Made by a program: the position numbers and the translations under genes. DNA of 64,000 nucleotides from Tribonema minus (lineage: Eukaryota; Sar; Xanthophyceae; Tribonematales; Tribonemataceae): positions 62,001-126,000 of the forward strand of contig JAFCMP010000135.1 in NCBI GenBank assembly GCA_017506865.1. Direction: 5' to 3'. How positions within the stretch are numbered: the stretch's first letter is position 1; the number at the start of each line of letters is the position of its first letter. Below are positions 607 to 63,960 of the stretch, piece after piece. The notes beneath the pieces were generated by a model. The model searched no databases. It was not told the origin of the DNA and saw nothing but the letters and a program-made list of their open reading frames with translations.

Positions 607-3600
607 CTGTGGGGTGGGGTGGGGGGGGGGGGGGAGGGGCGGGGGGGGGGGGGGGTAAGTGCGCGCATTCGTACTGCGGCTCAGACACATGGACAGCGCT
701 GCTTCTGTTGTTTGCGTAGAGATGTGCTGCCGCCCGCGAGACGGGCTGGCGCAGGAGGTAGGCGCGCGCTTCTCCAATTGCAGCACATGCACCTACGCCT
801 CATACTTATTGAGAGCCGCAGCACCGGCATTGCTCTAAACACCTGCTCGCACTCCGCAGCGCGCGACTGGGGATACGTCAGCTTTTTCGACCTGGCATCG
901 TCCCAAACGGCCAGCTTCAGAGCTGGTGCTGCCTTGAGGTGTTGGCTTTGGGTGCTTGCTCGAGTGTAGCAGGCACGCGAGTGAGGTAATAGCCAAGGCA
1001 TCCGTTAAGGCTTACTGCCTACTTCGAAGTATTTTGCACGCAGAGAGTGCTCCGTCGTGTTGGTGATCAGCAGGTGCGCTGCGCTGATGCTCAGTGGGTG
1101 ACAATGGGGGAACAGGCCTTGAAGAGTGTGAAGTTTTCAGATGTCTGGGATAGGCAGCAGCATGTGCATCACTTTTTGCTTGGCACCGACCAACAAGGCT
1201 AGGCACACAGCTGTAGCAGAGTTCCAGCTGGCAGACTAGCAGAGGATGGCCACCATTTGGCGTTTCACCTTCGGCTGAGCCCAAGTTGCAACTGCACGCC
1301 ATCGTGTTCGCCTTCCACCGGCAGGTACGACGGTGCACCTCACCCATGTCTTGACCGCAACACCAGACCCTCACCGTCTTCCTGATCCTAAGTGCCATCG
1401 TCAGAGCTGGTATCAACATGAAAATCATACATTTCGGGATATCTCAAAGATGCGCTGGCGTGCGACCGGCCGCCCTCTGACTGCAGCACAGTGGTCATTG
1501 AACTTTGCTTCATGAGCACACTGTAGGGCGCAGTGCAGACTAGGCGGCTGCGTAGGCGCAACCTTCGCGATTGCATGGGACACCCGGCCTTCCTGGGGGT
1601 CTTCATTGTCGTCCTTGCCAGTCTCGTAGAGCCGCTCCCCAAGTGCCACTGAGCTCGGGGCAGCGGCGGAGGAGGCTCCGTCTGAAACCCATCTATTAGC
1701 TTTGTGAGTGTTTGTGTACCCTCCAGCAGGGAAAGCATTCACGAGCTCAGTATGTGCATACGTGTTGTTGACGGCGTGCAGCACAGGTGTTCCGCCCCTA
1801 AAGACAAAAAAGTACTTGCCTTCTGCCAGGTGTGATGCGCTGGCGTGCGAGAGGCCGCCCTCGGACTGCAGCACGCGCTGGTACAGGTCGTCCGACTGGG
1901 GGTCCGCCTCGTCGGAGTGCGCGCGCATGCTGCGCGCGCCGTCCGCGCCCTGCGGTGCGCACGCGCAGCGGCGATTGATATTCAGAGCGTGCCGCATTTG
2001 AACCACAACAAGTACGTCCGAGGTATGCCGTATGATACTTGACGTACGTAGGACGGCGCGGGGTCCGCCTCGTCGGAGTGCGTGCGTATGCTGCGCGCGC
2101 CGTCCGCGCCCTGCAGTCTCACGCGTGCGGTGGCAATTTACACGGCGTATTACGCTTTGCAGCATAGTGTAACAGGTACTTCAGGTGTGCCGTTTGCATT
2201 GCAACAAATCACCAACATGCCAATCTGCCAAGTGGAGACTGGTTGAATGTAGAGGTGCTGCGGTGTGCACGGAGCGTGCTGCGCGCGCCGTCCGCGCCCT
2301 GCGGTGCTCGTAACGCGGCGGCAGTTCTTGTGATGTGTGATGTCTTGGACCACAGCAAGTATGTCCGATGTGTGCCGTTCGAATCACTGCACTACCACCA
2401 CTGCCTGAACCTCCCAAGTGGAGGTTGGTTTGATGTGGCAGTTCCGCGGTGCGCACGGAGACTGCCGCGTGCGCGCCCTGCGGGACCCGCGCAGCGGCAA
2501 TTGATGTACAGAGGTACAGAAGTTGGCTTCTTTGCGCCCTAAGAGGGAATTAACAAAGAGCACAGAGTGTTGTATTTGGACCAGAACAAGGTTGTCCGAA
2601 GTATGCCGTTGCCGTACAGCACTTGTATACGTAACGTAGCTCCACCACCACCTGAAACTGCCAAGTGGAAATCGATCGAAGGTGGCGGCTGTGCTGTGCG
2701 CACAAAGGGCAGCTGCGTGGTGAACGCTTTGTTGAAGCGTAAGCGCGCTTCCCACGTCGCCGACTGTGGCGCGCGCACAACGGCAGCAGAGCTGAGCCTG
2801 TCTTGAGCTTCAAAGACATGGGTTTCGGGCATCGGCATGAAGCATCAGACGCCACGACGAAGAAGCGCTACTGCAGACAGCGCGTTCGCGAGCGCGGCCA
2901 GCACTGCATGCGCACGGGCGCTCGCGTCGTCAGCGCAGCGGAAGTTGAGTTGAAGTTGATGCCGAGCGCTGCGGCGCGTATTATGCCATCTGACTTCACA
3001 ATTGCCGTGTGCTGGCGGGGTGCGCCCGTGAGCGCGCGCGCTGCCGACAGCGGCGCTGCCAACGGCGCCTGTTGCCAGCAGAGATCCGCGTCTTGCTGAG
3101 CACTGCTGCGATGACACATGTCCGCGTCAGTCACCGCCACGCACGCGCCGCCGTCCGCCGAGCCAGCAGCTGCATGCACCCCCAAACCCGCGACAAGCCC
3201 TCTAGCAGCAGTGTTGCCCGGCCTCGTGCACACACTGGGGACTGGTAGCGGTGTGCCAACACCCGTCTCAGTCAGTAGCCCTAACGCCAACCCTGTTCCA
3301 ACAATACTGCTCCCCCTGCCACAGCTAGCCCGCCAGCCCTAACGATGACCCAACCCCAACCCTAACCCCAACCCTGACGCCCCATCTCAACCCCCCCTTA
3401 CCTGCGATGGCCAGCCGCCGCCGGCGGTGGCGATAAGGCTGACGCTGCCGGCCTCCCGCATGCCGCGCCCGTTGGTGCTGAGGCGCCGAGCGCTGTTGCG
3501 CCAGCCGCCGATGGCGCTCACGGCGCGCGACAGGTGGCCAGCGCCGCTGCCGCCGCCGCCGCCGCCGGGGCGGTAGCTGCTGTGGTGCGGCGTGTGCGTC

Positions 3601-6600
3601 ATGTGCTGCGAGTGCGTCTGGCTGAGGCCGAACTTGCTCGAGGCCTTGTTGGCGGCCTGCGGTGGCAAGAGCGCAGCGTGGGGCGTGGAGGAAGATGAGA
3701 TGTTGGTTATAGAACGCCGCTGGTGGAGGCTGCGTGTGACGCACTGACCGTTGAACTTGCTGGAGGCCTTGTTGGCGGCCTGCATTGGCAAGAGTGCAGC
3801 GTGAGGCGTGGAGAAGGAGTGCAGCGTGAGATGTGGAGAAAAATGAGAGATTGGTCATGGAACGCCGCCGGGTGGAGGTTGCCTTTGACGCACGGAACAT
3901 CGGGAGTGCGGCGTAATGCGTGGAGCATGAGTACTCGTAGTTGGTCGTAGAACGCCGCCGCTGGTGGAAGTTGCGTGTGACGCACTGGATGTTGAAGTAC
4001 TGACACTGAAGTCGCGCGGATGCAGCAGACGTTCTTTCTGCAGCTTGTGAGAGAAAAAGTTCTCAATCTGCATTGCCACCGCTCAGCGGCGTGTGCGGCG
4101 TCGGCGGTTGCGCGCAGTGCGCCACTCACTGCCCCCTGCCGGAACTCTTTCGCGGCAGTGGATGCAATTGAAATTGTCCGCTGCAGCTACTGGGAGTGCG
4201 CGTACTGACAAGTCGTGCGGCCATAAAGTTTTCACCAGCGATTCAATTGATGCAGGTATCGGCACTACCGATGGCAAAGGACCTGGCTGCCACCATTCCA
4301 ACATCACGCCACCGGCTCCAACTTGCTTGCTTGAAGTAGGTGAGGAGCGTCTCAGCAGCCATGATCTTAGCATGCACCCACGACTTAGCAAGCACGCGCC
4401 GCGGGATTTTTGTATGTCACTGTGTGTATGTATATGCCCCCACGTGCCAGGCACGCGCCACTGCATGCATATACGTTAAGATACGTATGTATATGCCCCA
4501 CCTGCAGAGTTTCCGTGGTGCAGATCCTGCTCTTGGCAAGCATCTCCACTGCGAGCTTGAAGCTGGGGAACATGTCCAGAACCGCCTGGAAGTTGTCCCT
4601 ACTCAGAACCTGTGGCGCCGCACAGTTGAAGTGCAAGAAGCACACACCCAAAAACAGCGCTCAATTTTAGGTCCATGTAGTTGTTAGCGGGCGCGGTGCC
4701 GTTCTGTGACTGTGAAACCACAGTCGCAATAAACACGGTCATTTGATCGAAATACACGCAAGAAGGGGCTAGAGTCGGGCACCGTGCCGCCTCTCGCTGC
4801 GCAGTGCAGCTGCAGTGGACACGTTGTCTGCTAGGGACGCACACTGAGCTAGACACGCGCTGCTGGCAGGTAGCAACCTAACCCCAACCCTAACTCAACC
4901 CTAACCCTGAGGGGGAGTTGTGTCGGGCGCAATGGGCTGAGCTGTTGTCCCCTGGCACACCCCATCACATACCCCACAAGGGGAAGGGGAGAGGCCCGAG
5001 GGACAGGTAGAACGGGACCAGCACCGGGCGCAATGCCGTTGATCGAGTGCGCGCCGCAGTTGCGGGCACACGCGTTAACGTCTGATGCGACGGGACTAGT
5101 AGAGCGCTGTGCTACTGCTGTGGGGGATCGGCCTCAAGCAGAGTCTTGCAGGCATTGTTGTGCCGCTTCACACGCCGGCGTCAGCCGCACAGTTTCGACA
5201 GAGATTCAGGAGGCCTGCCGCTGCTGTCACGCGAGTTCGCACGAGAGACGTTGTAACCTCGAAGCTGCAACACTCAGGCACAGGCCAACCTGTTACATGG
5301 GGAAGTTTAAGGTCTTGAGGTGGTGATTCCAAGACTTTCTATGAAGTGTTTCTAGGTCAGCAGCAAACACGACCATAGCCCCAAGCGGTCAGGTCCAATG
5401 ATTGAATTTTGGTGATGGCACCCTGACTGAGGAAGCGTTGACTGGATTCAAGAGTCTGCAGCAACAGCCACTAATACTCCAAAGTAATCAGGCTCGATAT
5501 TGACCCTTGCTGTTGGTGCCTTGATTGTAGAAGCTGTAATTCTCAAGACTCTAGTTCACAAGGATCGATACTCCGGAGCATTCAGGCTTGATGTTGAACT
5601 CTGCTGTTGCAGTTTGACCGCGGGAGCGTCACTCGCCTGCAGCTCGCAGAAGCACGTGGAGCGCACGTTGGCGGTGCGCACGGTGCGGTAGTGCGTGAGC
5701 GCAATCTCGCCGAAGAAGGAGCCCTCGTGCAGCGAGATGATGTAGTACTCCACCTGCTCATGGATCACGTACACGCGCACCGTGCCGTGCGCGATGAAGA
5801 ACATGCACTCCGCCTGCGCGAGTGAGTGAGTCAGTAAGTGAGTCGGTGAGTCTGCATACGATTTGAATGCGTATACCCGCACTGTGCCATGCGCATTGAA
5901 GACTGTGCGCTTCGCCGCCGCAAGTGAATGAGTCAATGAGTAAGTCAGTCAATACGGTGCCACGAGCAACAGCCGGAGTGACTGGGTCCGTGTTGCCATG
6001 TATGGTGAGGTACTGTGGTAGGCAGAGAATGATTTACGGCTGCAGGTTCTGTGCGCATCCTGCTACCAAATACCTAGGGTTGCAAAAAAAACGTATTTGG
6101 CCACACAATACGGGGCGTATTTGGCAACCAGGAATACGTCGTGAGCAAACTTCAACATGATAGTATGCTGCGTGAAGGGCGTATTTGTGGGGTATGCGGT
6201 GAGTCTGCCCAATTCCGAGTATACAGTCTGCCACAAAAGGGGAACTTGAACTCCGAAATTAACTTCAGAATACACTTTTTTGCAACCCTACAAATACCTG
6301 AACCAAAGTCAAGATTAAATGTGAACTCCAGGGTTCATGACAAGCACACTCGCCTTCTCGCCCAGCCGTATGATGAGATCGCGGGCAGGATGATGTGCGG
6401 CTGCCCTACGCCCTGACCCTACTTGATAACTTAACCAAATGCGAGAGTCTGAGTTATGAGTCACAAGTCTCATGCACTTGCCTTCTCGCCCTGCCGAATG
6501 GTGAGATCGTTGGGCAGGATGATGTGCGCTGGAGGTTCTGCACGACCGCAATGACGCCCGTCGGCAAGCACGCCTTCAACCTGGCCATGCTTGCTCAAAC

Positions 6601-9600
6601 CCTAACCGTGCTTGCTTGAACCCTAATCATGCTTGAAGGTCAAGACGTCACCCCGCATAACTCTGGCCGAGCTCGAGAGGGTGAGGTACAATTTCATGAC
6701 TTCAGACGCGACACTCGCCTTCTCGCCCTGCCGAATGATGAGATCATTAGGCAGGATGATGTGCGGCTGCAGGTTCTGCACGCGTCATGCCCTACGCCCT
6801 GACCCTACTTGAAATCTTGGTCAAATGCAAGAGTCGGAGTCAAGAGTATCAAGTCCCACTCACCTTCTCGCCCTGTCGAATGATGAGGTCGTTGGGCAGG
6901 ATGATGTGCGGCTGCAGGTTCTGCACGAGCGCGATGACGCCCGCCGGGGAACACGCCTTGAACAGCGGAACCTTCTCGATGAGGCTCTTCTTGAGCGCGA
7001 CGTTGAGCTGCAGGCGCAGCTTATTAGGCAGGTCCGAGAAGAGAGAAGCGTTGTGCCGCGTCTGCCCGCTGTCCCAGAGGTACTCGTAGTAGCTGCGGAT
7101 CGTCTTCTGGAGGCCCACGGGGACCTTCCTGAACCGCATGTACTCGTTGATGCTGCGTTCGGAGCGAGGGACACGTAGGGGGGGGGGGGGGGGAGTAAGG
7201 GTTAAGGTTTGGATTAGGACTAGGGTTAGGCTCTTGGGAGGGTTGTCCTAGAGGTATTCGTAGTAGCTGCGGATCGTCTTCTGCAGCCCCACGGGGACCT
7301 TGCGGATCCGCATGTACTCGTTGATGCTGCACGGGGGGTGGGCAAAGGGGGGGGGGTTGAGATGGGGGTTTGGGCGAGCGAGTCCTAATTTACCAACGGG
7401 ACAGGCATGAATCATGTTGCGCAACGCGACGGTAGCGGCGTGCAAGGCGACGAGTACTGGCACACCATAACAAGCCGGGATGATCTGCGCACAGCGCTTC
7501 ATAAGTTCGTTTGCATTGACACTGTCAACGCTGCCACAGCCACTTGAAGTATCAACTTGGAACAAGTTGAAGTTATTATGTTGAACTTACCCATCCATCT
7601 GCGCCTTCTTGGCCACCGCGGTGGTGTCCATGTTGCTCAGCAGCGTTGCGGCGCTACCTATGATGACGGCGTTGACCACCAGCGCCACCAGGTAGCCCAG
7701 CGACATGTACACGTTCTCGATCAGCGTTGTCTGCCCCATGGCGTTGCCGAAGTTCACGGCCAAGACGAACGTCAGTGCCTGCAGGGCGTGACAAGTGCGT
7801 TGAACGTTTCAATGCTGGACTAACTTGACAGGTGAGGTTAGCGGTCATTGTGAAGTTTAAAGTTGCCTACTTCGAAGTACATGAATTCGAATACTTGGAA
7901 GTAGGTGATCAAAAGAGTCATCAGAAATTAATAAGTATGAACATGACATGCAGAGGGGAAGTGGCCTATGTGGCAGAGTGTAAAGTTCTTGCGCAGGGAT
8001 CTGTGTGAGGCAGCAGCGTGTGCAGCGCTGCCTGCTCGTTACCGACGACTACGCATGTAGCTGCAGCAGATTAGCTGCTGGTCCTCTGGTGACTACAGAT
8101 GTCTGACGCGTAGCATTGCCAAATTTCGATTTTCAGCATCATGTATACACACATGGACGTCACGCACGAGCATACATATGCACGTATGTGATTCACGTCG
8201 CTTACTTTGGGGGATCACGTATGCCTTGTCCCATGAGCGCTCACGTGTGTGTGCTGGTCGCCTCATCTGCTGTGCCTGTCCTCTGGCGATGGCGTCCATC
8301 TATGAGCCATATACATACGTGCATGTTTTTGTAACGTGCACATCGCATGGCACTCTTCACTTTAGTGGATACTTGACATATAAGTACTCACGTGTATGAA
8401 CTGGTCGCCCAATGGGCTGTGCCGGTTCTCCGGCAACGGTGTCGCGTTTACGTGCCATACATGTATGTGCATGTACTGATGTACGCGTCACATGGTATCA
8501 TTGACAAGGTCACTTGGGATGTTTGTGCTTCAACCTTGAGGTACGCACTCACGTGTATGTACTGGTCGCCCAATCTGCTGTGCCTGTTCTCCGGCGACGG
8601 AGTCCAGATTATGTGCCATATACTTCAAAAGTACACATGTGCATGTTTTCGTAAATGTACACAACACTGGAAGTATTCTTTACTTTACTTGAAGTACGCA
8701 CTCACGTGTATGTACTGGTCGCCCAATCTGCTGTGCCTGTTCTGCGGCGAAGGCGTCCAGCAATTCGAACATGTATACGTGTGCATGTGTTCATAAATGT
8801 ACGTGTCAACATGGTATTCTTCATTTTACTGCATACGTGAAGTACGAGCTCACGTGTATGTGTGTACTGGTCGCCTAATAACTTCATACTTGAAGTATGA
8901 GCTCACGTGTATGTACTGGTCGCCCAATCTGCTGTGCCTGTTCTCCGGTGATGGCGTCCAATCTGTGGAGAAGTCCTCCTTTATGGCAATGTACCAGTAC
9001 ACGCACGCCATCACGTGCACTATCAGCGCAAAGATGACAAAGAACTTCATCATGCGGTAGACAGCGGGGTTGAAGCTGCGCGGGGGGGGGGGGGGGGGGG
9101 GGGGGGAAGGGGGAAAAGGGGCAGGGAGGCGGGGGGGGGGGGGGCGGGGGGAATTGTGTCGATCATTCAATAAAGCTCGAAAGCGCATACTTGTTTATCT
9201 GTTGGTCCAAATGGGTCAGTGCAAGTTGCAGCAGTCGAACGAGCATCTCCTAGTGAACATGCCCAGAGTCGTGTGGCGATGGCCTGATGCGCATTCATGC
9301 TGCTTACTGTATATTTGGGTTCGCATTTACGACACAACGGCAGCTCTCTTGCAGCGTCGCTCTACCGCATTTGCATGGCGGTGACAGCGCTCAAGCATCA
9401 GTGATGACGACATACCTCACTGCTATAGTACACTCAACACTCATCAGCTGCATGTAGTTCCAATGACGTGTATGTATGTGTCGCATGTATTCATACCCTA
9501 CGTACCTGATAATCTCTTCCAGCTTCTTCATGATCTTGGCGGCCTCGCGCCCCATGGTGAAGAGCTTGAGCGTGCGGAATGACTTGAAGATGAGCGCTAT

Positions 9601-16094: not shown

Positions 16095-16140
<46 letters not shown>

Positions 16141-16247
16141 CATGCTGGCGGGCAGCGTCGCCGCGCGCTGGTCGCGGTGCTCGTTTCTGCTGCCGCCGCC
16201 ATCGCCGCCGTCGACGGGGCACGAGCGCACGCGCGCGTCGCGATGGC

Positions 16248-16309
<62 letters not shown>

Positions 16310-19529: not shown

Positions 19530-22500
19530 CTGCAGCAGGCGCCACGACCAAACATGGCGCAGCAGTTGTAAGCATTGCGTTCGTAGTCATGATGTGCTGT
19601 GTGCTGCGGCAAATCTGTGCTGAGACAAACTGGTGCTGCGGCGAACCTGTGTGATCAAAATCTGATATACAGATGGACTTTTCCGCGCCTTCAGCGCGAC
19701 TTCAAGGAGACTGGTCACTACCAGTGAGCAAGACAGCCCGAGAAAAAGGGTGCTGTTGAGATCGGGATGTACAGATGAACCACGAATACTTCCAACTCAA
19801 CTTGTCGCAAACCTGATTAAGCACACATACACATACCACATTGTCGCTGACGTCAGGTGTGTTGAAGTGCCGGGCTTACACTTGAAACCTAAGTTGTCAC
19901 AGACCCAATTAGACTACATGTACGTACCACATTGACGTCGCACGGGTTCACATACCAACATACCTGAAGCATGGACTCTATCCACTTGTCAAGTCTTCAA
20001 GCATCTCGCGAAAACCCGCCATAACCCCTTTTTTCAGAGATATAAGGTATGCTGCTGGGGTTCACATAGCAACGTACCTACAGCTTGGGCTCCATCCGCT
20101 TGTTGGGGTCCACGAGCATCTCACTGAACCCTCGCAAGTATGGGTATGTATACTGCAGGTTAGGTAATATATGTATACCAGCATACCTGAAGCATGGACT
20201 CCATCCACTTGTCGGGGTCCTCCAGCATCTCGCTGAACCCCGGCACGTATGTATGCTGCTGCGGGTTCACATACCAACATACCTGAAGGACTCCATCCAC
20301 TTGTCGGGGTCCTCGAGCATCTCGCGAAAACCCTCAAAAAACCCTCTTTGTTCAATGGTATGGGTATGTATATCGCCAAAGTGTACCAACATACCTGAAG
20401 CCCACTTGTCGGGGTCCTCGAGCATCTCGCTGAAAAACACTCCTTTTCGGAAACTGACCCTTTGTTCAGAGGTATGTTGTATGCTGCTGCGGGTTCAAAT
20501 ACCAGCATACCTGCAGCGTGGACTCCACCCACTTGTCGGGGTCCCTGAGCATGTCGCCAAAAATAGCCTTATTTCCCCGAGAGGTATGTACGTATGCTGC
20601 TGCGGATAAAACATGTGTACCAACATACCTGGAGCATGGACTCCATCCACTTGTCAGGGTCCTCGAGCATCTCGCTGAACCCCGGCAGCTGCGCCATGGC
20701 CTGCTTGAGCATGGGGTTCTCCAGGATGGCCTTGCGCGACTCCTCGATCTTCTCCGGCGACCCAAAGAACTCGTCCATCATGGGCGAGTTGAGCACTTCC
20801 CCCATCATCTGCGGGTTACCAAATGCGGGTGAGATTAGATTTGATGGCAAGTTTTGGTTTTGACGACAGATTAATGAAAAATGATGTTTTCCAGAGACCC
20901 CCGAACAACTCGTCCATTGTGGGCGAGTTGAGCACTTCCCCCATTATCTGCACGCCGTGGCGAGGACAGGTTAGGGGTTGAAGGTTTTCCCCGGGGCATG
21001 ATGCATGATGCGAGCGCCCTCGCGTCACAGCTAGGACGGGTTGGACGTGGGGTTGCGATCGGGTCTCATATTGAAAACTGCTCCGATGGCCCGAGGATGT
21101 GTCCACCGCGGACGGACTGAGCGCTGCCCCATCATACATGCCGCAGCAAACGCGGGGTTACTGTCAAGGTTGGTGCTACCATTCTGAGAGTCATGCCAGA
21201 GTTACGCGACCGCTCGGTCCGCCCCAGATAACCTAGTTGATCTGAGCGAGTTGGGCACTTTGCACATCACCAGTACGAGGTCGCAAGTGCGGGCCGGGTT
21301 GCATGTAGCAGCATGTATGCAGAGTAGAGCTTAGGGTTGGTAGGCTACGGCTGGGGATGAGGCTAGAGATCGAGGTCTGCTCGGCGCAGTCCAAACAACT
21401 CGTGCATCAGGGTGAAGTGATACCTTTCCCATTCGTCTGCACTCCGCACCAGCAGCAACGCTTCACTTTCACTGCGGGTTGCTCTGTACTTCAACTATTG
21501 CAGTACCGTCAAAGAGGAGGGTGGAAGTTGTTTCTTTGAAACCTGCGTTGAGAAGGGTAGCGGGTGCCTTTGTGGTGTGCTTTCAATATGGAAACGAGAG
21601 CCCCCAACTGGAGCAAAGAAGCGTGGAGTCTCGCAACTGTTTTGCACTGTTGCTGTTGAAGTTGAAGTTTTGGTGACTTCTGCACTTGAGGTGAAGGCGT
21701 TCCTGCACCCAATGACATTTTCGAGGGGACTGACTACAGCACCCCTACGCACAATATGATGCGCACGCTGCCGACGATCTGGAGTTTTGGTAATTGCTGC
21801 ATCTCAGCACTTGAAGTCGAGCGTCGCTGCACCCCCTGCACCCAGCACACGTCGTGGGCGGTGGCTACTGTGCCACGTGCGCACAGGGTGATGCGCAAGC
21901 TGCCAGAGCAGACGTGCTCGCTAGCAAGCAAGCTGCTATCACGTCAGTGGCGAACCTTGTGCGTACACCCTGATGTTGACACAAAAACAACGTTCGCCTC
22001 TACTTCTCTGCTGTGCTGCCACAGCAGATGCAGATGTGGCGAAGGTGCAAGCATGCCCCAAAAGTGACCATCCCTGGTCGCGTTTCTGTGTACATTTGTC
22101 ACGGGCAATGATTCTTGAATGGTCGCATTGCTTGCCCATTTTTGCACTAAGTAGGTGCAGCTGCTAAGGAAATTGTTGAAACGTGCACGCATGAAGCCAT
22201 GCTCTGCAAATTGCCAAGGCTTACAGTCTGATCACTGCACACGCACTGTGCAGCCCGCAGCATCACAAGTACTTGCATACATACTGTCCATACAGTTTAT
22301 TAGTGGTCACTATTCAAAATTGGCAATGATCTGAAGGATGGTCATCTGTATTAAAATCCCAAATGAACCTACTTGGTGTTATTAAAAGCAACAAGCTGGT
22401 ACACAATGTATCTGAGCGACTGAACACAGGGCGGACTGGTTATTACCTCTCTCGTTCTTCTAGCAGACAAGAGGTAAAGATTTTGACAGCACTTTACGAC

Positions 22501-26713: not shown

Positions 26714-26748
<35 letters not shown>

Positions 26749-29082
26749 ATCTCGCCCCCGTCACCTTGCGCCGGCGCTGAAGAGTCAACATCATTTGCGC
26801 GGGTCTGCTGATCTGGAACGCCGCGGTGGTTCTCATGGGCATGGCCAGGGACTTCCGGTGGTTACTGGGGTCAAGGATCGTTCTGGGAATCGGGGAAGCG
26901 TTCTCGGGGCCCGCGTCGTACTCGCTCATCGCCGACCTATTCCCGCTGGGGCGGCGCGCGGAGGCGAACGGCGTGTTCGCGTTCGGCATCTACGTAGGCG
27001 GAGGTGAGACATGCCTATGTAGAGGGAGGTGAGAGATGCTCATGTAGGGTGCGTCCCCCTTCGCACCGCCTGTGCGATCGAGAACTCGCTTTCGGCAGCG
27101 CAGACCATCACCTCGCCCCCGCAGCATTCTCACCGCATTGCCAGCGCCTGCGGACATGAAAGTCCGGCGAGCTGTTTGAAACTGTTGAAGTTTGAACCTC
27201 TATGACCACCACCGCCACAGGCCCGCAGCCCCACTGCTGCACTTCAACCGGCGCCTGGACCCCCAAACGCGCCGTTCGCCTCTGCGCGCCGCCCCCAGTG
27301 GGAACATGTCCACAGTGAGCAAGTACGACGGCTTCCGCAAGCGCGTTATCGATCGCACAGGCGGTGCAAACGGGGAACGAGAGCATCTCTCACGTCCCCG
27401 TACGTAGATGCCAAACGCGCCCATGCCGTTCGTCTCCGCGCAGTGCGTTCGGCATCTACGTAGGGGGAGGTGAGAGGATCCCGCCCCCTCCTCAGAGACG
27501 TACGCTGTGATTGCAGTTGGCATCCACGTAGGGGGAGGTGAGGCGCTCCCATCCCTGTTTGCCATCGATAACTCGATTGTGGAAGCCGTCGTGCTGGCTC
27601 ATCGCAGACCTGTTCCTGCCAGGGCGGCGCGCAGAGGCGAACGGCGTGTTCGCGTTCGGCATCTGCGTAGGGGGAGGTGAGGCGTGCTTATCTCATGTAG
27701 GAGGAGGTGAGAGATGCTCCCGTCCCCCCCTTCGCATGGCCTGTGCGGTCGACAACTCGCTGAGGGCAGCACGCGCTGTCCGCGCCTGGAATCTACGCAG
27801 GGGGGGATGCGGTGTACCTGCCACCTCCCCTGGCCCCCCCTCTGCCCTTGCTGTTCACAACTGCCGTCATCAGAGTCACCAACCGGAGGCGAGTGTCGAA
27901 CGGCGTTTTTGCCTTTGGCAATGTAGGTGGGGGTGATATGGCTCTCCCCCTTCCCCCCTCCCACCCCCACTTTGTGTGGCCTCTTGCTCACAAGCAACTG
28001 ACGTTTATGAACTCAGCATGCGCAGGCGAAAGTGGCAAGTTCGCCTTCGGCATCTTCGTGGGGCGCGGTGAGGCGCTTAGCATTAGGGTTAGGGTTAGGG
28101 TTAGGCGGCGTCGGCCCTCGGCCATCGCACTGCTGCTTAGGACACGTTTGACAGTCTAATGCTTCCATACCAAGCATGTGTGATGGCGGCTGCGCGCGTG
28201 CACTCCACGTGCAGCTGCAGGAGGTGACGTGCCCACTGATGCTTACTTCAAGCGGGGATGCGCTCCCGTTGACCCTAACCCTCCGTAAACGCAATGAACC
28301 GCAGGCATGGGCAGCCTCAGTCTCGCCATGGCGATGGCGCTCGGCTGACGCGTCGCGCGCTACGCGGTGCCACTAAGAATTACTGTGCCGCAATTGCTTG
28401 CGCGGATTGAGGCGCGCTGACGCACCTTCACCCTAGCCCTAACCCCACTTACCCTAGTTAACCGCAATGAACCGCAGGCATGGGCAGCCTCAGCCTCGCC
28501 ATGGCGATGGCATTCGGCTGGCGCACGACGTGCTACGCGGCGGCGGCGACCGGCGGCGCGCTCGCGTTGCTGACGCGTCACCCTAACCCTAATCCTAACC
28601 CTACTCAACTGCAGGCATGGGCAGCCTCAGCCTGGCCATGGCGATGGCGCTCGGCTGGCGCGTTACGTGCTACGCCGCGGCGCCGAGCGGCGGCTCGCTT
28701 GCGCTGCTGACGCGTCCTTCACCCTAACCCTAACCCCACTGACCCTAGTTAAACGCAATGCACCGCAGGCATGGGCAGCCTCAGCCTGGCCATGGCCATG
28801 GCATTCGGCTGGCGCGCGACGTGCTACGCCGCGGCAGCGGCGACCGGCGCCGCGCTCGCGCTGTTGACACGCCCTAACCCTAACCCTAACCCTTACCCTA
28901 CTCAACTGCAGGCATGGGCAGCCTCAGCCTCGCCATGGCCATGGCATTTGGCTGGCGCGCGACGTGCTACGCGGCGGCGGCGAGCGGCGGCGCGCTCGCG
29001 CTGCTGACGCGCGCCACGGTGCGCGAGCCGCCGCGCAGCGGCGCTGCGGCGGCGTCGCTCAAGCCGCACGTCGAGCAGCCGC

Positions 29083-38878: not shown

Positions 38879-41800
38879 GTGAGTCAGATGAGGCTGAAGT
38901 TGACCTTGAAGTTGAAGCAGTGCGTTCCGCGTGCGCCCGTAACAGAACGCGGGCGACCTTCCTCGAAGCGCGTCGACTGTGGCTTGCCCCGGGGCAATTG
39001 CTGACGGCGCTGGCATTGCGGCGGAGCAGCGTGTTCGGATGCATTGGCAGCGACGCTCAGCGCGGCGCCGGAGGTTGGCCAGGGAGTGGCAGCGCGCAGC
39101 GTGCTGGAGGAGCGTTGGAATCCGAGAACGCGAGGACTGCGGCTTTGCACATCACATCGTCATCAGCGTGGCTCTATGCCAGATGACACACCGCGGCGAG
39201 TCGCGTGCGCCCTCACTGCAAGGAGCACAGGACCATGTAACGACCGGAACAACATCCGCGCCTCATTGCGTGCGTGTGCTGAATGCTTCGCCGCAGGCTC
39301 GCCTCGCTGCGGCGGCGGCAGCAGCGGCGGCAGTGACAGCGCTCAGCAGCGGGACGCGCGCGGCAGCCGCACGCGCCGCGAGGCGCAGCCGTGGTGGGAG
39401 GTGGACCTGAGGGGCACGTTCGCCGTAAAGGCGGTGCGCGTGCGCTGCGCTGCGGGGCGCGCCGCGCCGCCGCCGCTGTGGGTCATGCTTCTGCCCTACA
39501 GGTGCGTCATGCTTTGAACTTGAAGATTCGTGGCGATGCGCCGCGGGGCGCGCCGCGCCGCCGCCGCTGTGGGTCATGCTGCTGCCGTACAGGTGCGTCA
39601 CGGTCTGAACTTGAAGTTCTGTGACAGTGCGTGTGAGCCGCGCCGCGGAGCGTGACTCCGCCGCTGTGGGTCGTGCTGCCCTACAGGTGCGTCGCCTTTT
39701 GGACTTGCAGACTTGAACTTGGGCAGGCAGTGCGTGTGAGCTCCGCGCCGCCGCCGCTGTGGGGGGTACGCTGCTGCGCTATATGTGCGTCACCACCTGC
39801 GTTGTGGACTTGAAGTTGCGGTATATCTGTGTCCGCCCGCCAAAGATTTAGCGCTTGTTCCTGAAGAGCGGGGTGGTTGTGCACTTCAAGCCCAGGTCGT
39901 CGTAAGGCCGAAAGGCGCTGAGGTGCAGCACCGCCGCTGCGGCCGCGTGCCGCTGCTGCTGTGCCGCTCCGTGCGATACCCAAGCAACAGTCAAAGCTTT
40001 TCGCCGTCGCTGCTTTGTGGCAGATCACGCCAAACATTGACAGCGAAAGGCAGCATTGCCTGCCCCCATGCAAGAACCCTGTCCCAAATGAGCTCAGGTT
40101 GAAGTGGAGCCTGCACTGATCGTGAAGCGCCAGTGGAGGTCTGACGCGGCACCAGCATCAGGTAACCTACTGCGTGTCTGTGATCTACAGGAAAGGAGCC
40201 GCCACGCTGCAGGCTGCGCAGGCCGCGGCCACGCTCGCCACCAGGCTGAGCGATGTGCACGCGGCAGCGGCCAGCGGCAGCAGTGGCGGCGGCGCGCACG
40301 CGCACGAGTGGGAGTGGCAGGTCCCAGCGGACGCGTTCGCCGGTGCTGTGAGAATACAGGTGCGCGTGCTGGTGCGTTCCTTCTTGAATTTTGTTGCCGT
40401 GGAGTGGTTGTTGGTGCCGTGCACATGAGCACGTTGCTGTCGCGCACAGGTCAGAGCCATCTCAGGTGTAATGTGTGCATCTGAGCAGGGCGTTGCGCTG
40501 CCGACGTGTGCGTCAAACCCCAGGTATGTATGCGCAAGTTTGTTACCTGTACACCTCAAAGTGTTGTACGAGTAAAATCAACAAACAGCGGTCACAGCAG
40601 CCTTTTACACCGGCGTGCGTGCCGCGTCGCTCACACTCCACACACACGTAACGTAACTCTGGAGCATATTTCTTGCACGTGCTGCGGGCGCGCCTGCCGA
40701 GCGCGTGCCAACACATTGCTGCCGCATCGGCGCGCGCACGCAATAATGTACTGAAGCAGGCCCCTCGCGCGCACCACGGGAGGGCCCACCGAGCGTACGC
40801 CGACGACACTGGGAACCGTGTCAGCACTGAAGTAGTGAAATACAACAATGTGACGATCGAACATTCGGCGCGGGCATGCTGCAGGCGGAGGGCACCGCCG
40901 CGCTGCGCATCGCGCGCGTCGCCGTCATCAAGGGCGGCGGCAGCGTCGACGCGCACCGCGCCGCGTCGCGCCTGCGCCGGCGGCAGCGCGCAGCAGCGCT
41001 CAAAACTGCTGCCGATGGCCGCGCGCCCGACGGTCACTGCGGCGGCGGCGGCGCCTGTGGCGACGCTGGCTGTGGTGATACCGGCGGCGGCGGCGGCGGC
41101 GGCGGAGGCGGCGGTGGCGGCGGTGGCGGCGGCGACTGCTGCGACGCCGCGGCGGCGGCAGCGGCGGCGGAAGCGCAGCGCCGCGCGGAGGCGGAGCGCG
41201 CCGCGTTCATCCGGCGCCTGAAGCGCTACTGCCGCCGCGCGCGGCGCGTGAAGGCGGATAAGCGCGGACGCCGCGGGGGTGGCGAGCGGGCGGCAGCGTC
41301 CGAGTCGGAGTCTGGGTCGTGTTCGCTGCCCACGGGGTGTAGCACGGCTGCGGGGGGTGGCGGCAGGGGGGAAGGGGGAGGGGGGGCGTGCACCCCCCCC
41401 TCGCCTACGAGAACAGCTGCAGGTGGGGTACCCTCCAATGGAGGAAAAATGGCAAGTGTTCTGCGCAAAAGAATTCAAGGCTCTTGCGCCGGCGCAGCTT
41501 ACAAAGACTGGTGGGTGGCTTGACTTGCAGCGGCGCGTGTACGCTTTGAAGGCGATGGCTGGTGTGCTCCGGCAGGCGCGGTTCCGCTCGCACGCGCTAT
41601 CTTGACTTCGCGATGCCCCCAGTCAGCCTTATGTGCGAATCAAGCATGCGGAAGGACATCTCAATGGCAGTGGGAGCATCGGCAGCACCGCGCGGCCGCG
41701 GCTGCGCGGTGCACGTATTCCACCCCTAACCTTGACCCTAAATCTAACCCTAACCCTAACCCTAAACCTAAACCTAACTGACCTTAATCCTAATCCTAAC

Positions 41801-45261: not shown

Positions 45262-45294
<33 letters not shown>

Positions 45295-50824: not shown

Positions 50825-53800
50825 GTGAGCACTGCTGCCCTCAGGCGCCCGTGATGTGAAGTTACCATTTTCACATCCGCAATGTGAAGTCACCAGCTTC
50901 ACATGGGTATGTGACCATCCAGGTCCCGACATGACTGTGTCTCGCATCACCTCACGCGCGTGGCATTCCAACCAACGCAGTGTTGACATCTATGTCTGAG
51001 CGTCACCACTATTCGTGTGGCTTCACGAACGCCATTCCGGCGTCGCGGCCACTGCAGCCCGTGATTTGACCCCCCGCCCCCCCCCCCGCGCATCGCCACA
51101 AGACCAAACGGAGCAAAGCACGCATGGTGATTCGCTCCTGAAACCCCCCTCACACGTGCTGCGCACGCCGTGCAGAAAGCGGCGCTGCCGCCGCCGCAGC
51201 AGGAAGAGGAGACGACGTCGTCCGCCGCCGCGGCCGCCGCCGCCGCTGCCGCCGCCGCCGCTGCCGCCGCCGCCGCCCCCCCTCAGCTCCCCCCCGCTTC
51301 GGCACCGGCGGCGTCGGAACCGGAGCTGATGCAGTCGGACGACGAGGGCAGCGGCAATGGCGGCGCGACGATGCAGGCAGCGGCGGCGGAGGCGCCCAAG
51401 GCGAAGGCGGCGGCGGCGGGGCGCAAGAAGACGAAGCGCGCGCCTAACGCGCCGCTCGCGGCCAAGAGCGCGTACATGTGCTTCTGCCAGGACCAGCGCC
51501 CCGCGGCGAAGGCGGCGCTGGGGAGGACGCCAAGGTGCGCAGGGGGGGGGGGGTAGGCTTGGCTCAAGTGTATTGTTTTATGTGTGAGTATGGGGGGGGG
51601 GGGGGAGGGAGGTGCATGGGGGGGGGGGGGGGGGGGGGAGGGAGGTGCGCAAGGGGGGGGGGAGGGAGGCCTGGGTGTATTGTTTTGTGTGTAATGGTGG
51701 TATGGAGGGGGGTTGCTGGGGGAGGACGCCAAGGTGCGCGCGGCATGGGGCGGGGGGGGGGGCAGGGGGGGTGGGCTTGGCTCGGGTGTATTGTTTTGTG
51801 TGTGATGGGGGTATGGGGGAGGGGGGGGCTGGCGGTGATGTTGGTATGGGGGGGGGGGGATTGGGGGCGGGTAGGCTTGGCTCGGGTATTGTGTTGTGCG
51901 CGCGGGTGTGTATATGTGTGGAGGGGGGGGTGGGGGGTAGGCTTCGCTCGGGTGTATTGTTTTGTGTGTGTGGTGCGGGTATGGGGGGAGGGGGAGGCTG
52001 CTGGGGGAGGACGCCAAGGTGCGCCTGACGTGGGGGGGGCAGGCTTGGCTTGGGGTATTGCGTCTTGTGTGTGATGGGGGTGGGGGGGAGGGTAACTGGG
52101 GGAGGACGCCAGGGTGCGCCTGACGTGGGGGGGCGTGTGGGGGGGAGGCGTAGGCTTGGCTTGGGTGTGTTGTTTTGTGTGTGATGGGGGTATGGGGGGG
52201 GGGAGGGGCGGGTTGACGTCAAGGTGCGCAACGGGGGGGGGGGGGGGGGGGTGCGTGGCTTGGGTGTATTGTTTTGTGCGATGGTATGGGGGGGGAGGTT
52301 GCTGGGGGAGGACGCCAAGGTGCGCGGGCAAGGGGGAGGGGGGTGGGGTAGGTTGGCTTGGGTGTATTTTGTTGTGTGCGATGGTGGTATGAGGGGGGTT
52401 TGCTGGGGAAGGACGCCAAGGGGCGGGGGTGGGCGGGGGGGGGGGGGGTAGGGGTAGGCTTGGCTTGAGAGTGTATTATTTTGTGTGTGATGGGGTATGG
52501 GGAGGGGGGGGGGGTGCTGGGGTGCTGGGGTAGGGGTAGCAGCCAGGGTAGCCATCCTGGACATCGCCAATGAATTCATAAGATGTTTGCTTGAAGTATT
52601 TGCACGCCTGTCCACAGGCGACGGAAGTGCTCAAGCGCCTCGGCGCCGAGTGGCAGGAGCTCGGCAAGCAGCCCCGCGCGCCCAACTTATCTATTTGTGA
52701 ATGGATCGTCGCCAATGAAACACTATTTAACTTGAAGTATACTGCACGTGTCCACAGGCGACGGAAGTGCTCAAGCGCCTCGGCGCCATGTGGCAGGACC
52801 TGGGCGAGGAGGCGTGCGGCAAGTACGTGGAGATTGTCATGTGAATTGTACTTTTTAATAATTATCGCTCAGGGCGCGAAAAAGCCCAGATGAATGGCAT
52901 CTAACATGAAGCTTTCATGTATTATGAACGAAACAATGAACATCGCCAATGAGAACAATATTTAGCCTGAAGAATATACTGCCTGCACGCATACGCAGGC
53001 GACGGAAGTGCTCAAGCGCCTCGGCGCCATGTGGCAGGCGCTCGGCGAGGAGGCGCGCGGCAAGTACGTGGAGATGGCTGCGGAGGACAAGATCCGCTAC
53101 GCGGTGAGTGAGGGGCGTGAATGCGCATGAACGTGAATGTGAATGCGCAGATGAGTGAATGAGAGGCGTGAATTGGGTAGTGGAGATGGCCGCGGAGGAC
53201 AAGATACGCTATGCGGTCAGTGAGGGGCGTGAATGCGCATGAACGTGAATGCGAATGCGCAGATGAGCGAATGCGAGACGTGAATTGGAGAAATGGGCGT
53301 GTTGGAAAAAACTGAACGAATGGTTGCGAGGCGCTGGCCGCGGAGGACAAGGTCCGCTATGCGGTGAGTGAGGGGCGTGAACGCGCATGAATGTGAATGT
53401 GAATGCGCAGATGAGTGAATGAGAGGCGTGAATTGGGTAGTGAACGAGCTTGAATGGATGAATGAGTGATTACGAGGCGTGGACCGGCGTGAATTCCGGG
53501 GAGGGCGAGTTGCGGTGAGCGAGCGCATGAACGCGGAGATGAATGAATGATTTTAATGAATGAGAGGCGCAGAGCCGACATGAACGCCAGCAGAGGCGGG
53601 CCTTGCAGTGAGCGAACACACGCTGGTGCCATTCGCGTGAATGCAGGGCTGCATGAATGTGTGAATGAGAGGCGTGAACAGGCGTTCATGCCATTGGAGA
53701 GGGGGGCTGTGCGGCGAGTGATGCGCGAGCGGGCGAGCTGTCAGTGCTCGCCGCCGCTCCGTGAACGAGGCCGAGGCCCCTTCAGGGTTACGGCAAGCCA

Positions 53801-55293
53801 AATCACCTTAGGCAGCGTGCGTGCGGGCTATGCAGCCCTAGTTGTCTTTTGTCTTTTGGGAACTCTGTTCATCGCTGACGCTGATCATGTGTGCGTGTGC
53901 GTGTGTATGTGCTCCGCAGAATGAGATGAGCAACTACGATGGCCCCCTGATCACGCACGTGAGCTAGCCCTCGCTGCCTCTCGCCTTGAAAAGATGCGGT
54001 TCAAATTTGTCAAAGGTCCCGCGCGCTATGCAGCCCTTGTTGGGGGCTTTTGTCTTTCCGGACGTCTGCTCATCGCTGACACCGTGTTTCTGCACGCGTG
54101 CGCGCTGCGCAGAACGAGATGAGCAACTACGATGGCCCCCTTAAGGTGCCTGCCAAGCGGCCCGCCAAGAAGGACCCCAACGCGCCGCCCGCTGCCAAGA
54201 CGGCGTTCAACTTCTATCAGGTGACGCTCAAGAACTTGAAGTTGGAAGAAGGATCCATCGCGAGTCCAATTCATCGCGAGTCACACAACAAGTGGTGTTG
54301 TAAGGTTGTTTGAGATTTTAAACTTCCGCGTCTGCCGACCGTTCCCTGAAATACCCGTCGCTCCGCGCCCAGATCAGGGAGGGCACGAAGACCATGCAGC
54401 GCACTTGTCGCGTGTGTTCGACGTTTGTTGCAGACCAATGGCACAGTGCTCAGGCGGCCCACTGTAGCGCACTCTCGTTCTCGCAGACTTTCAATCACTT
54501 GCTGACATTGGCTGATTCCTCCGAAATGGCCATTGCTGCGCGCCTCAGACAGAGGCGACCTACTTCAGAAAACTCACTTGCTCGCAGACTTTGAATGACT
54601 GACTGACTGACTAACCATTGGCTGATTGCTCCCAAATGCCCATCGCTCCGCGCCCAGATCATACAGCAAGTGGTGTTGTAAGCTTGTTTTGAGATTCTGA
54701 GCCTTCCTCATCTGCTGACCATCATCCCGATTGCCCGTTTCGCCGCGCCTCAGATCGAGGCGACCTACTTCAGAAAACTCGCTTTTCTTGGAAACGAGAC
54801 ATTGAATGACTGACCGACTGACATTGGCTGATGGTTCCCAAAGTCCTGTTGCTGCGCGCCTCAGATCATACAGCAAGTGGCGTCATCAGCTTGTTTTGAG
54901 ATTTTGAGCCTTCCTCATCTGCTGACCGTTATCCCAATTGCCCGTTGCTACGCGCGTCGTTGCGCGCTCAGATGGAGGCGCGGGACGGCATGAAGCTGCG
55001 GCACCCCGAGGCGGGCGCGACTCATTGCTGCGCGCCTCAGATCGAGGCGACCTACTTCAGAAAACCTGTATTTTCTTGGAGACGAGACTTTGAATGACGG
55101 ACTGACTGGCATTTGCTGATTGTTCCAAAATGCTCAGATGGAGGCGCGGGACGGCATGAAGCTGCGGCACCCCGAGGCGGGCGCAAATGACATCTCGCGT
55201 CTCGTCGCGGCCGCGTGGAGGGAGCTCACGCCGGCCCAGAAGCTCGAGTACGACGAGAAGGCCAAGAACGACAAGGACCGCGTGGCGCAAGAG
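50579..55293 (+). CDS. Two-HMG-box nuclear protein with Lys-rich N-terminus (3' end uncertain)
   Basis: Exons 50579-50824, 51176-51534, 52999-53103, 54113-54220 and 55138-55293, about 325 aa to this point. Exon 1 is almost entirely Lys/Glu. Exon 2 has a 20-residue Ala run, an acidic patch and the start of HMG box 1 (RAPNAPLAAKSAYMCFCQDQ RP). Exon 3 finishes box 1. Exons 4 and 5 are box 2. Expected role: bending DNA in chromatin, as for HMGB proteins. Exon 2 is one base short of the phase needed. The end is either readthrough of the last donor (VTAQCH, TGA-free to TAG at 55312) or an unseen acidic exon. Confidence 0.88.
51176..51534 (+). CDS. HMG gene exon 2: poly-Ala, acidic patch, HMG box 1 first half
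   Basis: KAALPPPQQEEETTSS, about 18 Ala, then SEPELMQSDDEGS and RKKTKRAPNAPLAAKSAYMC FCQDQRP. The last codons read LGRTPR as written. With GGGGG instead of GGGG at 51520-51523 they read LGEDAK, the expected box sequence and phase 0. Confidence 0.82.
51535..52560 (+). repeat. G-rich minisatellite built from HMG exon 2 donor echoes (about 10 units)
   Basis: Units of about 80-130 bp: GGCTTGGCTCGGGTGTATTG TTTTGTGTGTGATGGGGGTATG plus a G-run, of which at least five (at about 51714, 52002, 52096, 52303 and 52402) also contain CTGGGGGAGGACGCCAAG|GTGCGC, the exon 2 end and donor. G-runs of 8-16 bases occur in most units. Confidence 0.93.
52612..52860 (+). repeat. Cassette echoes of HMG exon 3 acceptor (2 copies)
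   Basis: CCACAG|GCGACGGAAGTGCTCAAGCG at 52619 and 52759. Copy 1 stays homologous for about 60 bases, copy 2 for about 80 (through GGCAAGTACGTGGAGAT). The preceding intron (CATCGCCAATGA..., CTTGAAGTAT..TGCACG) is duplicated too. Confidence 0.95.
52999..53103 (+). CDS. HMG gene exon 3: HMG box 1 second half
   Basis: ATEVLKRLGAMWQALGEEAR GKYVEMAAEDKIRYA, with the L...W..L......Y...A..DK.RY pattern of an HMG box. Chosen over the two upstream copies (52619, 52759) because only it keeps the full box and a donor. Confidence 0.92.
53165..53535 (+). repeat. Junction echoes of HMG exon 3 donor (2-3 copies)
   Basis: GTGGAGATGGCCGCGGAGGACAAGATACGCTATGCG|GTCAGTGAGG at 53179-53225, GCCGCGGAGGACAAGGTCCGCTATGCG|GTGAGTGAGG at 53335-53372, and a faint third near 53500. 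The GAATG-rich intron is copied each time. Confidence 0.95.
53915..53968 (+). repeat. Junction echo of HMG exon 4 acceptor
   Basis: CTCCGCAG|AATGAGATGAGCAACTACGATGGCCCCCT at 53912-53949, nearly identical to the first 34 bases of exon 4, then it diverges into ATCACGCAC|GTGAGC. Confidence 0.95.
54113..54220 (+). CDS. HMG gene exon 4: linker and HMG box 2 start
   Basis: NEMSNYDGPLKVPAKRPAKK DPNAPPAAKTAFNFYQ; KKDPNAP..A...F.F is the canonical box start. Phase 0, 36 codons. Confidence 0.93.
54360..55070 (+). repeat. Junction echoes of HMG exon 5 acceptor (4-5 copies)
   Basis: CGCGC..CAGAT(C/G)GAGGCG(A/C)... at about 54550, 54750, 54970 and 55035, with the intron string TTTGAATGAC.GACTGAC and TTGGCTGATTGTTCC copied. 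The copy at 54972-55018 is the closest (MEARDGMKLRHPEAGA). Confidence 0.85.
55138..55293 (+). CDS. HMG gene exon 5: HMG box 2 remainder
   Basis: MEARDGMKLRHPEAGANDIS RLVAAAWRELTPAQKLEYDE KAKNDKDRVAQE: W..L......Y...A..DK.R of the second box. Phase 0. Donor CAAGAG|GTGACT. Confidence 0.93.
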
Positions 55294-55444
55294 GTGACTG
55301 CACAATGCCATTAGCAAGCCGCAGAAGTGTCACATATACGCAAGGTGTATGAAGTAACGGCGCAATACTATCATATTTGCAAAGCAGAAGTATGCACACG
55401 AGATGTACAAAGTATATACTTCGAAGTAGTTCGCGTACATGTTT

Positions 55445-57424: not shown

Positions 57425-57572
57425 TGACTACTGTGGATATGGTGGCACTGTTTGATTCTGGCCAATTGCCGCAGCAGCGGCGACCACGGTTATCGGTGGA
57501 AGGCACTGGCGGCTACCCACATCTTGTCACCTAGAGCTCTTTGTACGATCTTTTGATTCGTTTCCATGCATG
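57425..57572 (+). repeat. Dispersed repeat, copy 2
   Basis: Collinear partner of 47222-47385, 10 kb away and outside any exon. It is not an echo of a neighbouring exon, so it may be a mobile or segmentally duplicated fragment. Confidence 0.8.
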
Positions 57573-63787: not shown

Positions 63788-63889
63788 GTACGTGCATAAC
63801 GTGTTTACGTTCATGCCAATGTATGGACTTCAACTGAGGTACTTGAAGTATGTAGGCTTCAAGTCAGGTTCGAAGTACACTTTTATTGA

Positions 63890-63960
63890 AGCATGTTGGA
63901 GGAGCTCGCGCGAAAGTTGACGGCGCTCGCGGCGGAGAACGCGCAGCTGGTGCAGGTACG
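63890..63960 (+). repeat. Junction echo of WW exon 5 donor
   Basis: ATGTTGGAGGAGCTCGCGCGAAAGTTGACGGCGCTCGCGGCGGAGAACGCGCAGCTGGTGCAG|GTACGTGCATA differs from the exon 5 end at only a few sites and keeps the donor, 170 bp downstream. It has no visible acceptor. Confidence 0.93.

What the first reader, a model, noticed from the sequence alone, without database searches (positions are those of the whole stretch)
1436..63960. Junction echoes: nearly every exon edge is tandemly copied into its intron
On both strands and in six of the seven loci, a short unit made of exon end + splice site + intron flank is repeated 1-10 times into the intron. Acceptor copies lie upstream and donor copies downstream, and in the few cases I compared directly the nearer copies are less diverged (channel exon 5; HMG exon 5). 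Splice dinucleotides usually survive while the exon part is truncated. This is not ordinary exon duplication, since whole exons are not copied, and not a mobile element, since each array is private to its exon. It implies introns growing by duplication anchored at exon boundaries (replication slippage, microhomology repair, or template switching at R-loops) and leaves dense decoy splice sites that the splicing machinery must ignore. I know of no established name for this architecture.
Basis: seen in the sequence. Interest (0 to 1): 0.92.

Follow-up and report, generated by a model that had tools for sequence, protein, structure and literature searches.

The report
Duplicated splice junctions lengthen algal introns
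In this unnamed single-celled alga, many introns contain old, decaying copies of the exon edge and splice site next to them, apparently left by repeated small DNA duplications across the exon-intron border that lengthened the introns.

Summary
I extended it from the window to 16 chaperonin, dynein and kinesin genes of the same 158-Mb genome (50 modelled introns). There, 25 of 100 exon edges (20 of 50 introns) have a copy in their own intron. Controls: 0/100 reverse complement, 0/100 reversed, 0/58 other-side intron, 1/65 exon interior. Copies recur about every 140 bp, carry about 55 bp of exon, and nearer copies are usually more similar (20 v 7).

Mismatch rates by codon position (8.1, 8.2, 15.4%) fit non-functional copies decaying beside a protein-constrained exon. 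Best explanation: ordinary small tandem duplications, tolerated when they straddle one splice junction. Boundary-anchored duplication is not required: the intron half of each unit looks about fourfold more eroded, and with that bias uniform placement predicts 63% of detectable families to span a junction; 25 of 38 (66%) do. Anchoring is not excluded: exon depth is shallower than uniform (p=0.001) and genes differ sharply (p=0.0006). Ten paper searches listed no description of this architecture.

The parts
6864..7152 (-). Channel gene exon just before the exon with the cyclic-nucleotide-domain hit; acceptor 7153|7152, donor 6864|6863 (GTGAGT)
   Evidence: sequence read; junctions; the PF00027 hit falls at about 5640-5834, in the next exon
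7267..7326 (-). Acceptor echo of the exon above, 0.92 identical over 60 bp
   Evidence: also 7070-7187 v 7244-7356
6719..6778 (-). Donor echo 1 of the exon above, 0.93
6482..6540 (-). Donor echo 2, 0.92
6354..6404 (-). Donor echo 3, 0.88
6002..6051 (-). Donor echo 4, 0.80
20629..20808 (-). STI1-like exon of a ubiquilin-like gene (names from reading the sequence, not from a search); donor 20629|20628
   Evidence: sequence printed; donor
19964..20628 (-). Array of six donor echoes of the STI1-like exon, spacing 96-118 bp; the copy ending 20078 carries a stop codon, the copy ending 20395 lacks 11 bases
20883..20951 (-). Acceptor echo of the STI1-like exon, 84%
   Evidence: 20746-20812 v 20883-20951
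28272..29012 (+). Tandem array, unit about 137-173 bp, downstream of an MFS-transporter exon; exon junction not assigned
   Evidence: the MFS_1 hit falls at about 26781-27002
39442..39818 (+). 91-bp tandem array at the end of an open frame that resembles an F5/8-type C domain (resemblance by eye, not searched)
52999..53103 (+). HMG-box exon with echoes on both sides
   Evidence: junctions; HMG by reading (the best PF00505 stretch falls at about 55141-55296; the place of its second stretch was not printed)
52618..52677 (+). Acceptor echo 2 of the HMG exon, 0.88
52758..52817 (+). Acceptor echo 1 of the HMG exon, 0.93
53177..53215 (+). Donor echo 1 of the HMG exon, 0.90; here the 112-bp unit is copied in full
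53327..53363 (+). Donor echo 2 of the HMG exon, 0.84
54966..55018 (+). Acceptor echo of the second HMG-box exon (real acceptor 55137|55138): 53 bp, 100% identical; flanks do not align

Best explanation
These are the decaying remains of small local tandem duplications (unit mostly 75-225 bp, typically about 140 bp) that straddled one exon-intron junction. Such a duplication is close to neutral: the splice site next to the intact exon still works and the extra half-exon ends up inside the intron. Duplications inside exons, or of whole exons, would be purged. Repetition pushes older copies deeper and lengthens the intron. Exon-derived halves stay recognisable longer than the simpler intron halves, which makes the arrays look anchored to the exon edge. 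Shown: direct, local, junction-crossing copies in series, with rates that fit neutral decay. Inferred: the purging, the bias and the formation chemistry. For the last, fill-in of staggered breaks before end joining (the CST-Pol alpha-primase route to small tandem duplications) or polymerase-theta joining is my first choice, replication slippage second.
For: Copies are direct and local: 25/100 edges v 0/100 reverse complement, 0/100 reversed, 0/58 other-side intron, 1/65 exon interior. Homology crosses the splice site into the intron, median 24 bp, with in-register match 0.62 against 0.50 for unrelated introns (58 copies, a few poorly registered). At least one unit is copied in full (HMG, 112 bp, 92%). 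Spacing is unimodal, median 142 bp, 51 of 56 values between 75 and 225 bp. Nearer copies are more similar, 20 v 7; one five-copy array runs 0.86, 0.81, 0.78, 0.77, 0.75. Mismatch rates by codon position 0.081, 0.082, 0.154 in 56 copies fit neutral decay of the copy plus silent change in the exon. A 4-fold decay ratio fits mean intron match, correlation and the high-identity subset of 23 nearest copies together; with it uniform placement predicts 63% junction-spanning families v 25 of 38 seen. Repeats without an exon part cover 5.0% of intron bases, the same order as 2.8% in 3' flanks. Units amount to about 45-47% of the length of echo-bearing introns (47%, where two units lie in introns below the threshold); these introns have a median of 732 bp v 480 bp without. 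Interstitial telomere repeats, another possible trace of break repair, are dense in the window.
Against: A 4-fold faster decay of intron-like than exon-like sequence within one copy is large, is estimated from the same units, and has no independent support. Over all 56 copies exon and intron similarity barely correlate (0.13; 0.37 in the 23 nearest copies). Exon depth is shallower than uniform placement predicts (n=26, KS p=0.001). Counting families that touch a junction gives 30 of 38 (p=0.027 against 0.63). Gene-to-gene heterogeneity (p=0.0006) does not follow from a uniform process. No stop codon in 613 ungapped copy codons, 3.97 expected, P=0.019, though the window array has one. The formation chemistry and breakpoints were not tested.
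Confidence: 0.6

Rival explanations
1. Boundary-anchored copying: a process tied to splicing or transcription (R-loops, splice-site-positioned breaks, or nucleosomes phased on exons) repeatedly duplicates the junction itself, a core of about 50 bp of exon plus the splice site.
For: Exon depth 31-64 bp in 19 of 26 nearest copies, shallower than uniform; unit size peaked near 140 bp; blocks of 91% identity or more are at most 98 bp, with non-matching spacers, median length/offset 0.29 over 105 blocks; no intron-internal pair of 40 bp or more at 91% or above in the 50 introns; 30 of 38 families span or touch a junction; local repeats nearly absent from 3' flanks.
Against: The share of junction-spanning families is explained by uniform placement once faster intron decay is allowed for. 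Spacers are homologous above chance, which a short-block copy does not predict. The block search used strict scoring and a 40-bp floor, which favours short blocks. Shallow exon depth may reflect selection against long half-exons.
Confidence: 0.22
2. The echoes are functional (alternative splice sites, exonic enhancers or decoys) and kept by selection.
For: Exon side better kept than intron side in echo-echo comparisons: by position, 0.79-0.89 over the first 36 exon bases v 0.68-0.78 in the intron, null about 0.60 (57 pairs; C51 array); 0 stops in 613 codons, P=0.019.
Against: Codon positions 1 and 2 decay equally, at about the rate implied for silent sites of the exon. Splice dinucleotides are kept no better than neutral. 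The copies are half-exons; in the STI1-like array one has a stop and another a frame-breaking deletion.
Confidence: 0.08
3. Ectopic gene conversion from the exon keeps refreshing the exon half of old duplications.
For: Some exon halves are 97-100% identical while the intron half of the unit is about 70% or unalignable; exon and intron similarity correlate only 0.13 over all copies.
Against: Conversion should homogenise intron halves at least as well, since both directions are tolerated there (argument, not tested). In the 23 nearest copies the correlation is 0.37, within what a common age predicts.
Confidence: 0.07
4. Assembly or haplotype artefact.
For: Single assembly, no reads available.
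Against: Copies differ from the exon by about 9% on average and carry indels; they recur in unrelated genes on many contigs and, where both sides could be tested, only on the expected side of the exon.
Confidence: 0.02

Closest known systems
Tandem genomic duplication as a source of introns (review PMC3443670, passages seen)
   Same: Local tandem duplication involving splice-like sequence inside genes; the review calls it the only proposed intron-gain mechanism shown in vivo.
   Different: There a duplicated exonic AGGT creates a new intron. Here existing junctions are duplicated, often several times, and existing introns get longer; gain of new introns was not tested, for want of orthologues.
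Small tandem duplications by CST-Pol alpha-primase fill-in and end joining (PMC8355091, passages seen)
   Same: Direct tandem duplications around staggered breaks; a general DNA-level route that needs no mobile element.
   Different: Studied at induced breaks in mouse and human cells; the passages I saw make no link to splice junctions. Not tested in this alga.
Short direct repeats near splice sites (PMC11782384, abstract seen)
   Same: Direct repeats at intron/exon borders.
   Different: 4-30 bp, mean 11.4 bp, read there as insertion-site duplications; here tens of bp of exon plus splice site, often in multi-copy arrays inside the intron.
Introner elements (mobile introns)
   Same: Intron-associated repeats in protists.
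   Different: Introners share sequence between introns of different genes (recalled); here exon edges match their own intron and not the neighbouring one (0/58).

Membership tests
Local tandem duplication | Direct orientation, neighbouring copies | tested here: met
   25/100 direct v 0/100 inverted edges; spacing median 142 bp
Local tandem duplication | Whole unit copied, homology equal along the unit | tested here: inconclusive
   In-register intron half matches 0.62 v 0.50 null while nearest exon halves are about 0.91; a full-length copy is clear in the HMG array
Tandem-duplication intron gain | New intron formed between duplicated AGGT sites | not tested
   The copies lie inside introns beside intact junctions, but orthologous genes without the intron were not available
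Introner / mobile intron | Sequence shared among introns at different sites | tested here: inconclusive
   Edges do not match the intron on the other side of their exon, 0/58; sharing between genes was not searched
Whole-exon duplication (alternative exons) | Complete exon with both splice sites copied | tested here: not met
   Exon depth median about 55 bp; exon interior 1/65
CST-Pol alpha fill-in duplications | Dependence on CST, Ku and 3' overhangs | not testable with these tools
   Needs genetics

The most novel reading that the evidence does not exclude
Splice junctions are a preferred substrate for a duplication process that copies a core of about 50 bp of exon plus the splice site in steps of about 140 bp. 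Introns would then lengthen outward from their own exons, gene by gene, with splicing or exon-positioned chromatin setting the breakpoints.
Probability: 0.2. Interest if true: 0.85.

Novelty: new variant of a known kind. Interest (0 to 1): 0.55.

Why it matters
To my knowledge, how introns get longer without transposons is poorly documented. Here the growth steps are still legible: each echo is a dated copy of the splice junction, so order, size and age of events can be read from one genome. If ordinary duplication explains it, the case shows a simple neutral route to long introns and a detection bias (exon-derived halves outlive intron halves) that would make any such genome look "junction-anchored". 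If anchoring is confirmed, it would link splicing or chromatin to DNA duplication. Either way the splicing machinery must ignore many near-perfect decoy sites.

Tried and rejected
Gene conversion and selection on the echoes were considered after finding near-identical exon halves beside eroded intron halves. Codon-position rates and the joint fit made neutral decay sufficient, not proven. A first version of the unit-depth alignment let a region align with itself and was discarded; one search replaced it. The HMG second-box flank alignment was uninformative, and the intron-side identities in that call come from an ungapped alignment and are not used. Two introns with doubtful models (CCT_C279a 6082, DHC_C508 1152) were dropped from 52 before the counts; introns with gaps in HMM coverage were not modelled. 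In one search I merged the 16 internal matches by hand into 12 families and left one out by mistake; recounted they are 13, and one search gives the corrected 25 of 38. Blocks with few distinct trinucleotides were left out of the 105. The exon figure (22.5% covered) includes echo hits listed as exons and is not used. The organism could not be named: one light-harvesting protein matches PDB chains named ACPI, CAC, FCPI and LHCI, another only LHCI chains of one entry; telomere repeat TTAGGG. Ten paper searches listed no description of junction echoes; I saw only capped lists of titles and abstract beginnings, some searches matched thousands of papers and some none, and preprints and most subscription journals are not in that library. 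A recalled idea that a green alga shows something similar was not confirmed.
Full report
WHAT WAS CHECKED. The window lies at G000:C135:62001-126000 of a 158-Mb, 554-contig genome with no name attached. It is probably photosynthetic: the search for light-harvesting domains gave 92 matches. One of the proteins matches PDB chains named ACPI, CAC, FCPI and LHCI, another only LHCI chains of one entry. TTAGGG arrays stand at the starts of contigs C2 and C3, the two that the capped list showed. Window genes I recognised: a cyclic-nucleotide-gated channel (cNMP domain at about 5640-5834), an MFS transporter (about 26781-27002) and an HMG-box protein (best stretch about 55141-55296). The words ubiquilin-like, STI1-like and F5/8-type C domain are my reading of the sequence, not search results.

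WINDOW. Self-comparison gave 115 direct matches, 105 of them within 1 kb, and 20 inverted, 6 within 1 kb. Reading the sequence and testing 8 hand-picked exon edges confirmed copies at 5 of 8. The channel donor has four copies with identity falling with distance (0.93, 0.92, 0.88, 0.80), the HMG acceptor two (0.93, 0.88), the HMG donor two (0.90, 0.84). The STI1-like exon has six donor copies 96-118 bp apart.

GENOME SAMPLE. A Pfam search for chaperonin exons found, unprompted, repeated hits to the same part of the model beside real exons in three genes. Dynein and kinesin searches showed four more such cases, by my reading of the hit tables. I fetched 10 chaperonin genes, 5 dynein and 2 kinesin regions. 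The chaperonin regions hold 167 direct local matches and 6 inverted ones. Junctions with phase and HMM continuity were modelled for 52 introns; two doubtful models were dropped, leaving 50 in 16 genes. One fetched chaperonin gene (C51) gave no complete intron model and enters only as an array example.

CONTROLS. A 60-bp exon edge was aligned to its own intron at a score threshold of 46. Direct: 25/100 edges (12/50 donors, 13/50 acceptors), 20/50 introns. Reverse complement 0/100; reversed 0/100; intron on the other side of the same exon 0/58; exon interior 90-150 bp in 1/65. By sample: chaperonins 15/60 edges, 12/30 introns; dynein and kinesin 10/40 edges, 8/20 introns. Four of the latter seven genes were chosen partly after seeing an HMM echo, so the chaperonin figure is the less biased one; the two agree at 25% of edges. 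A looser match criterion gave 15 of 31 chaperonin introns.

ANATOMY. 58 copies, a few of them poorly registered, were measured: spacing median 142 bp (quartiles 117-172), exon depth median 55 bp, homology into the intron median 24 bp. The spacing histogram is unimodal, 51 of 56 values between 75 and 225 bp. Nearer copies are more similar in 20 of 27 untied adjacent comparisons in 13 arrays (p=0.0096). Copies keep AG in 23/26 and GT/GC in 19/22. Units sum to about 45-47% of the length of echo-bearing introns. Echo-bearing introns are longer, median 732 v 480 bp.

DECAY. Mismatches between copy and exon by codon position are 88/1093, 90/1099 and 169/1097 (0.081, 0.082, 0.154), with 52 indel events in 56 copies. 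That is what a non-functional copy beside a protein-constrained exon gives. Against this reading: 0 stops in 613 ungapped codons when about 4 were expected (P=0.019); the window array does contain one stop. In echo-echo comparisons the exon side is better kept (0.79-0.89 over its first 36 bases) than the intron side (0.68-0.78 over the same span; null about 0.60).

A PUZZLE AND ITS LIKELY ANSWER. Blocks of 91% identity or more are short (40-98 bp, 40 being my floor) with non-matching spacers (105 blocks, median length/offset 0.29; the strict scoring there favours short blocks). Side-by-side alignments show exon halves of 97-100% beside intron halves of about 70% or less. For the 23 nearest copies, simulated decay at the exon-half rate predicts an intron match of 0.84, against 0.62 seen. 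A four-fold faster decay of the intron half reproduces the mean (0.618 v 0.618), the correlation (0.45 v 0.37) and the high-identity subset (0.663 v 0.655, n=6); ratios of 3 and 6 fit less well. Over all copies the correlation is only 0.13. I cannot say whether the ratio reflects simple-sequence instability, ascertainment on the exon half, or copying of a short block.

ANCHORED OR NOT. Edge-derived families cover 22.8% of intron bases and families without exon part 5.0% (74 v 16 matches). 3' flanks of seven chaperonin genes, taken from the first in-frame stop after the last HMM hit, have 2.8% (288 of 10,395 bases, all in one gene). With the four-fold ratio, simulated duplications inside introns are detected 25% of the time, and 63% of detectable families should span a junction. 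Observed: 25 edges against 13 other families (the 16 matches merged by hand), 25 of 38. With equal decay the prediction is 31% and with a ratio of 2 it is 36%; both are rejected (p=1e-5 and 2e-4). So anchoring is not needed if the four-fold erosion is real. Facts on its side: five of the 13 other families touch a junction within about 5 bp, making 30 of 38 (p=0.027 against 0.63; the 0.63 leaves out shallow spans, so this overstates the excess); exon depth is shallower than uniform (mean relative depth 0.32, n=26, p=0.001); and genes differ (6/6 introns in one chaperonin gene, 0/6, 0/5 and 0/2 in others; p=0.0006 over 16 genes).

MECHANISM. Shown: direct, local, junction-crossing copies in series whose rates fit neutral decay. 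Inferred: tandem duplication at breaks, with selection removing duplications that alter exons. PMC8355091 (passages seen) describes small tandem duplications from CST-Pol alpha-primase fill-in at 3' overhangs with Ku-dependent joining, and a theta-dependent route with more microhomology. Dense interstitial telomere repeats in the window (38 ten-base hits v 0 in 20 shuffles) would fit a genome where telomere-type enzymes act at breaks; that link is my speculation.

KNOWN KINDS. Tandem genomic duplication is a recognised intron-gain route (PMC3443670, passages), but there it creates introns rather than lengthening them. Short direct repeats near splice sites have been reported (PMC11782384, abstract) at 4-30 bp. 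None of the papers listed in ten searches described this architecture, as far as titles and abstract beginnings show.

VERDICT. A real, unusual intron architecture, overstated in frequency, probably a neutral by-product of small tandem duplications and a detection bias; a junction-anchored process remains possible.

Noticed in passing
window, e.g. 26382, 28083, 28872, 30857, 41748, 46710; also fetched introns: Interstitial telomere-like TTAGGG/CCCTAA runs: 38 ten-base hits in the window v 0 in shuffles; 12 in 33.4 kb of modelled introns and 2 in 17.7 kb of exon hits. TTAGGG arrays also stand at the starts of contigs C2 and C3 (capped list).
   Followed up: partly
CCT_C279a (L050), CCT_C235a (L046), CCT_C235b (L055) v CCT_C135 (L051, L052): Chaperonin genes that look CCT-type by reading differ sharply: 0/6, 0/5 and 0/2 introns with echoes v 6/6; permutation over 16 genes p=0.0006. 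Two genes on one contig (C279) differ. Unexplained.
   Followed up: partly
G000:C90:851548-852869 and C179:225941-226947: Arrays of GTAAGTGYRAGT-like repeats turned up by a donor-site pattern search.
   Followed up: no
window 5637|5636 (minus strand), DHC_C514 2628, DHC_C146b 1166, CCT_C235b 6845: Donor sites with GC instead of GT.
   Followed up: no
window 611-655, 9082-9151, 26715-26746, 51592-52508: Long G or C runs and G-rich arrays.
   Followed up: no
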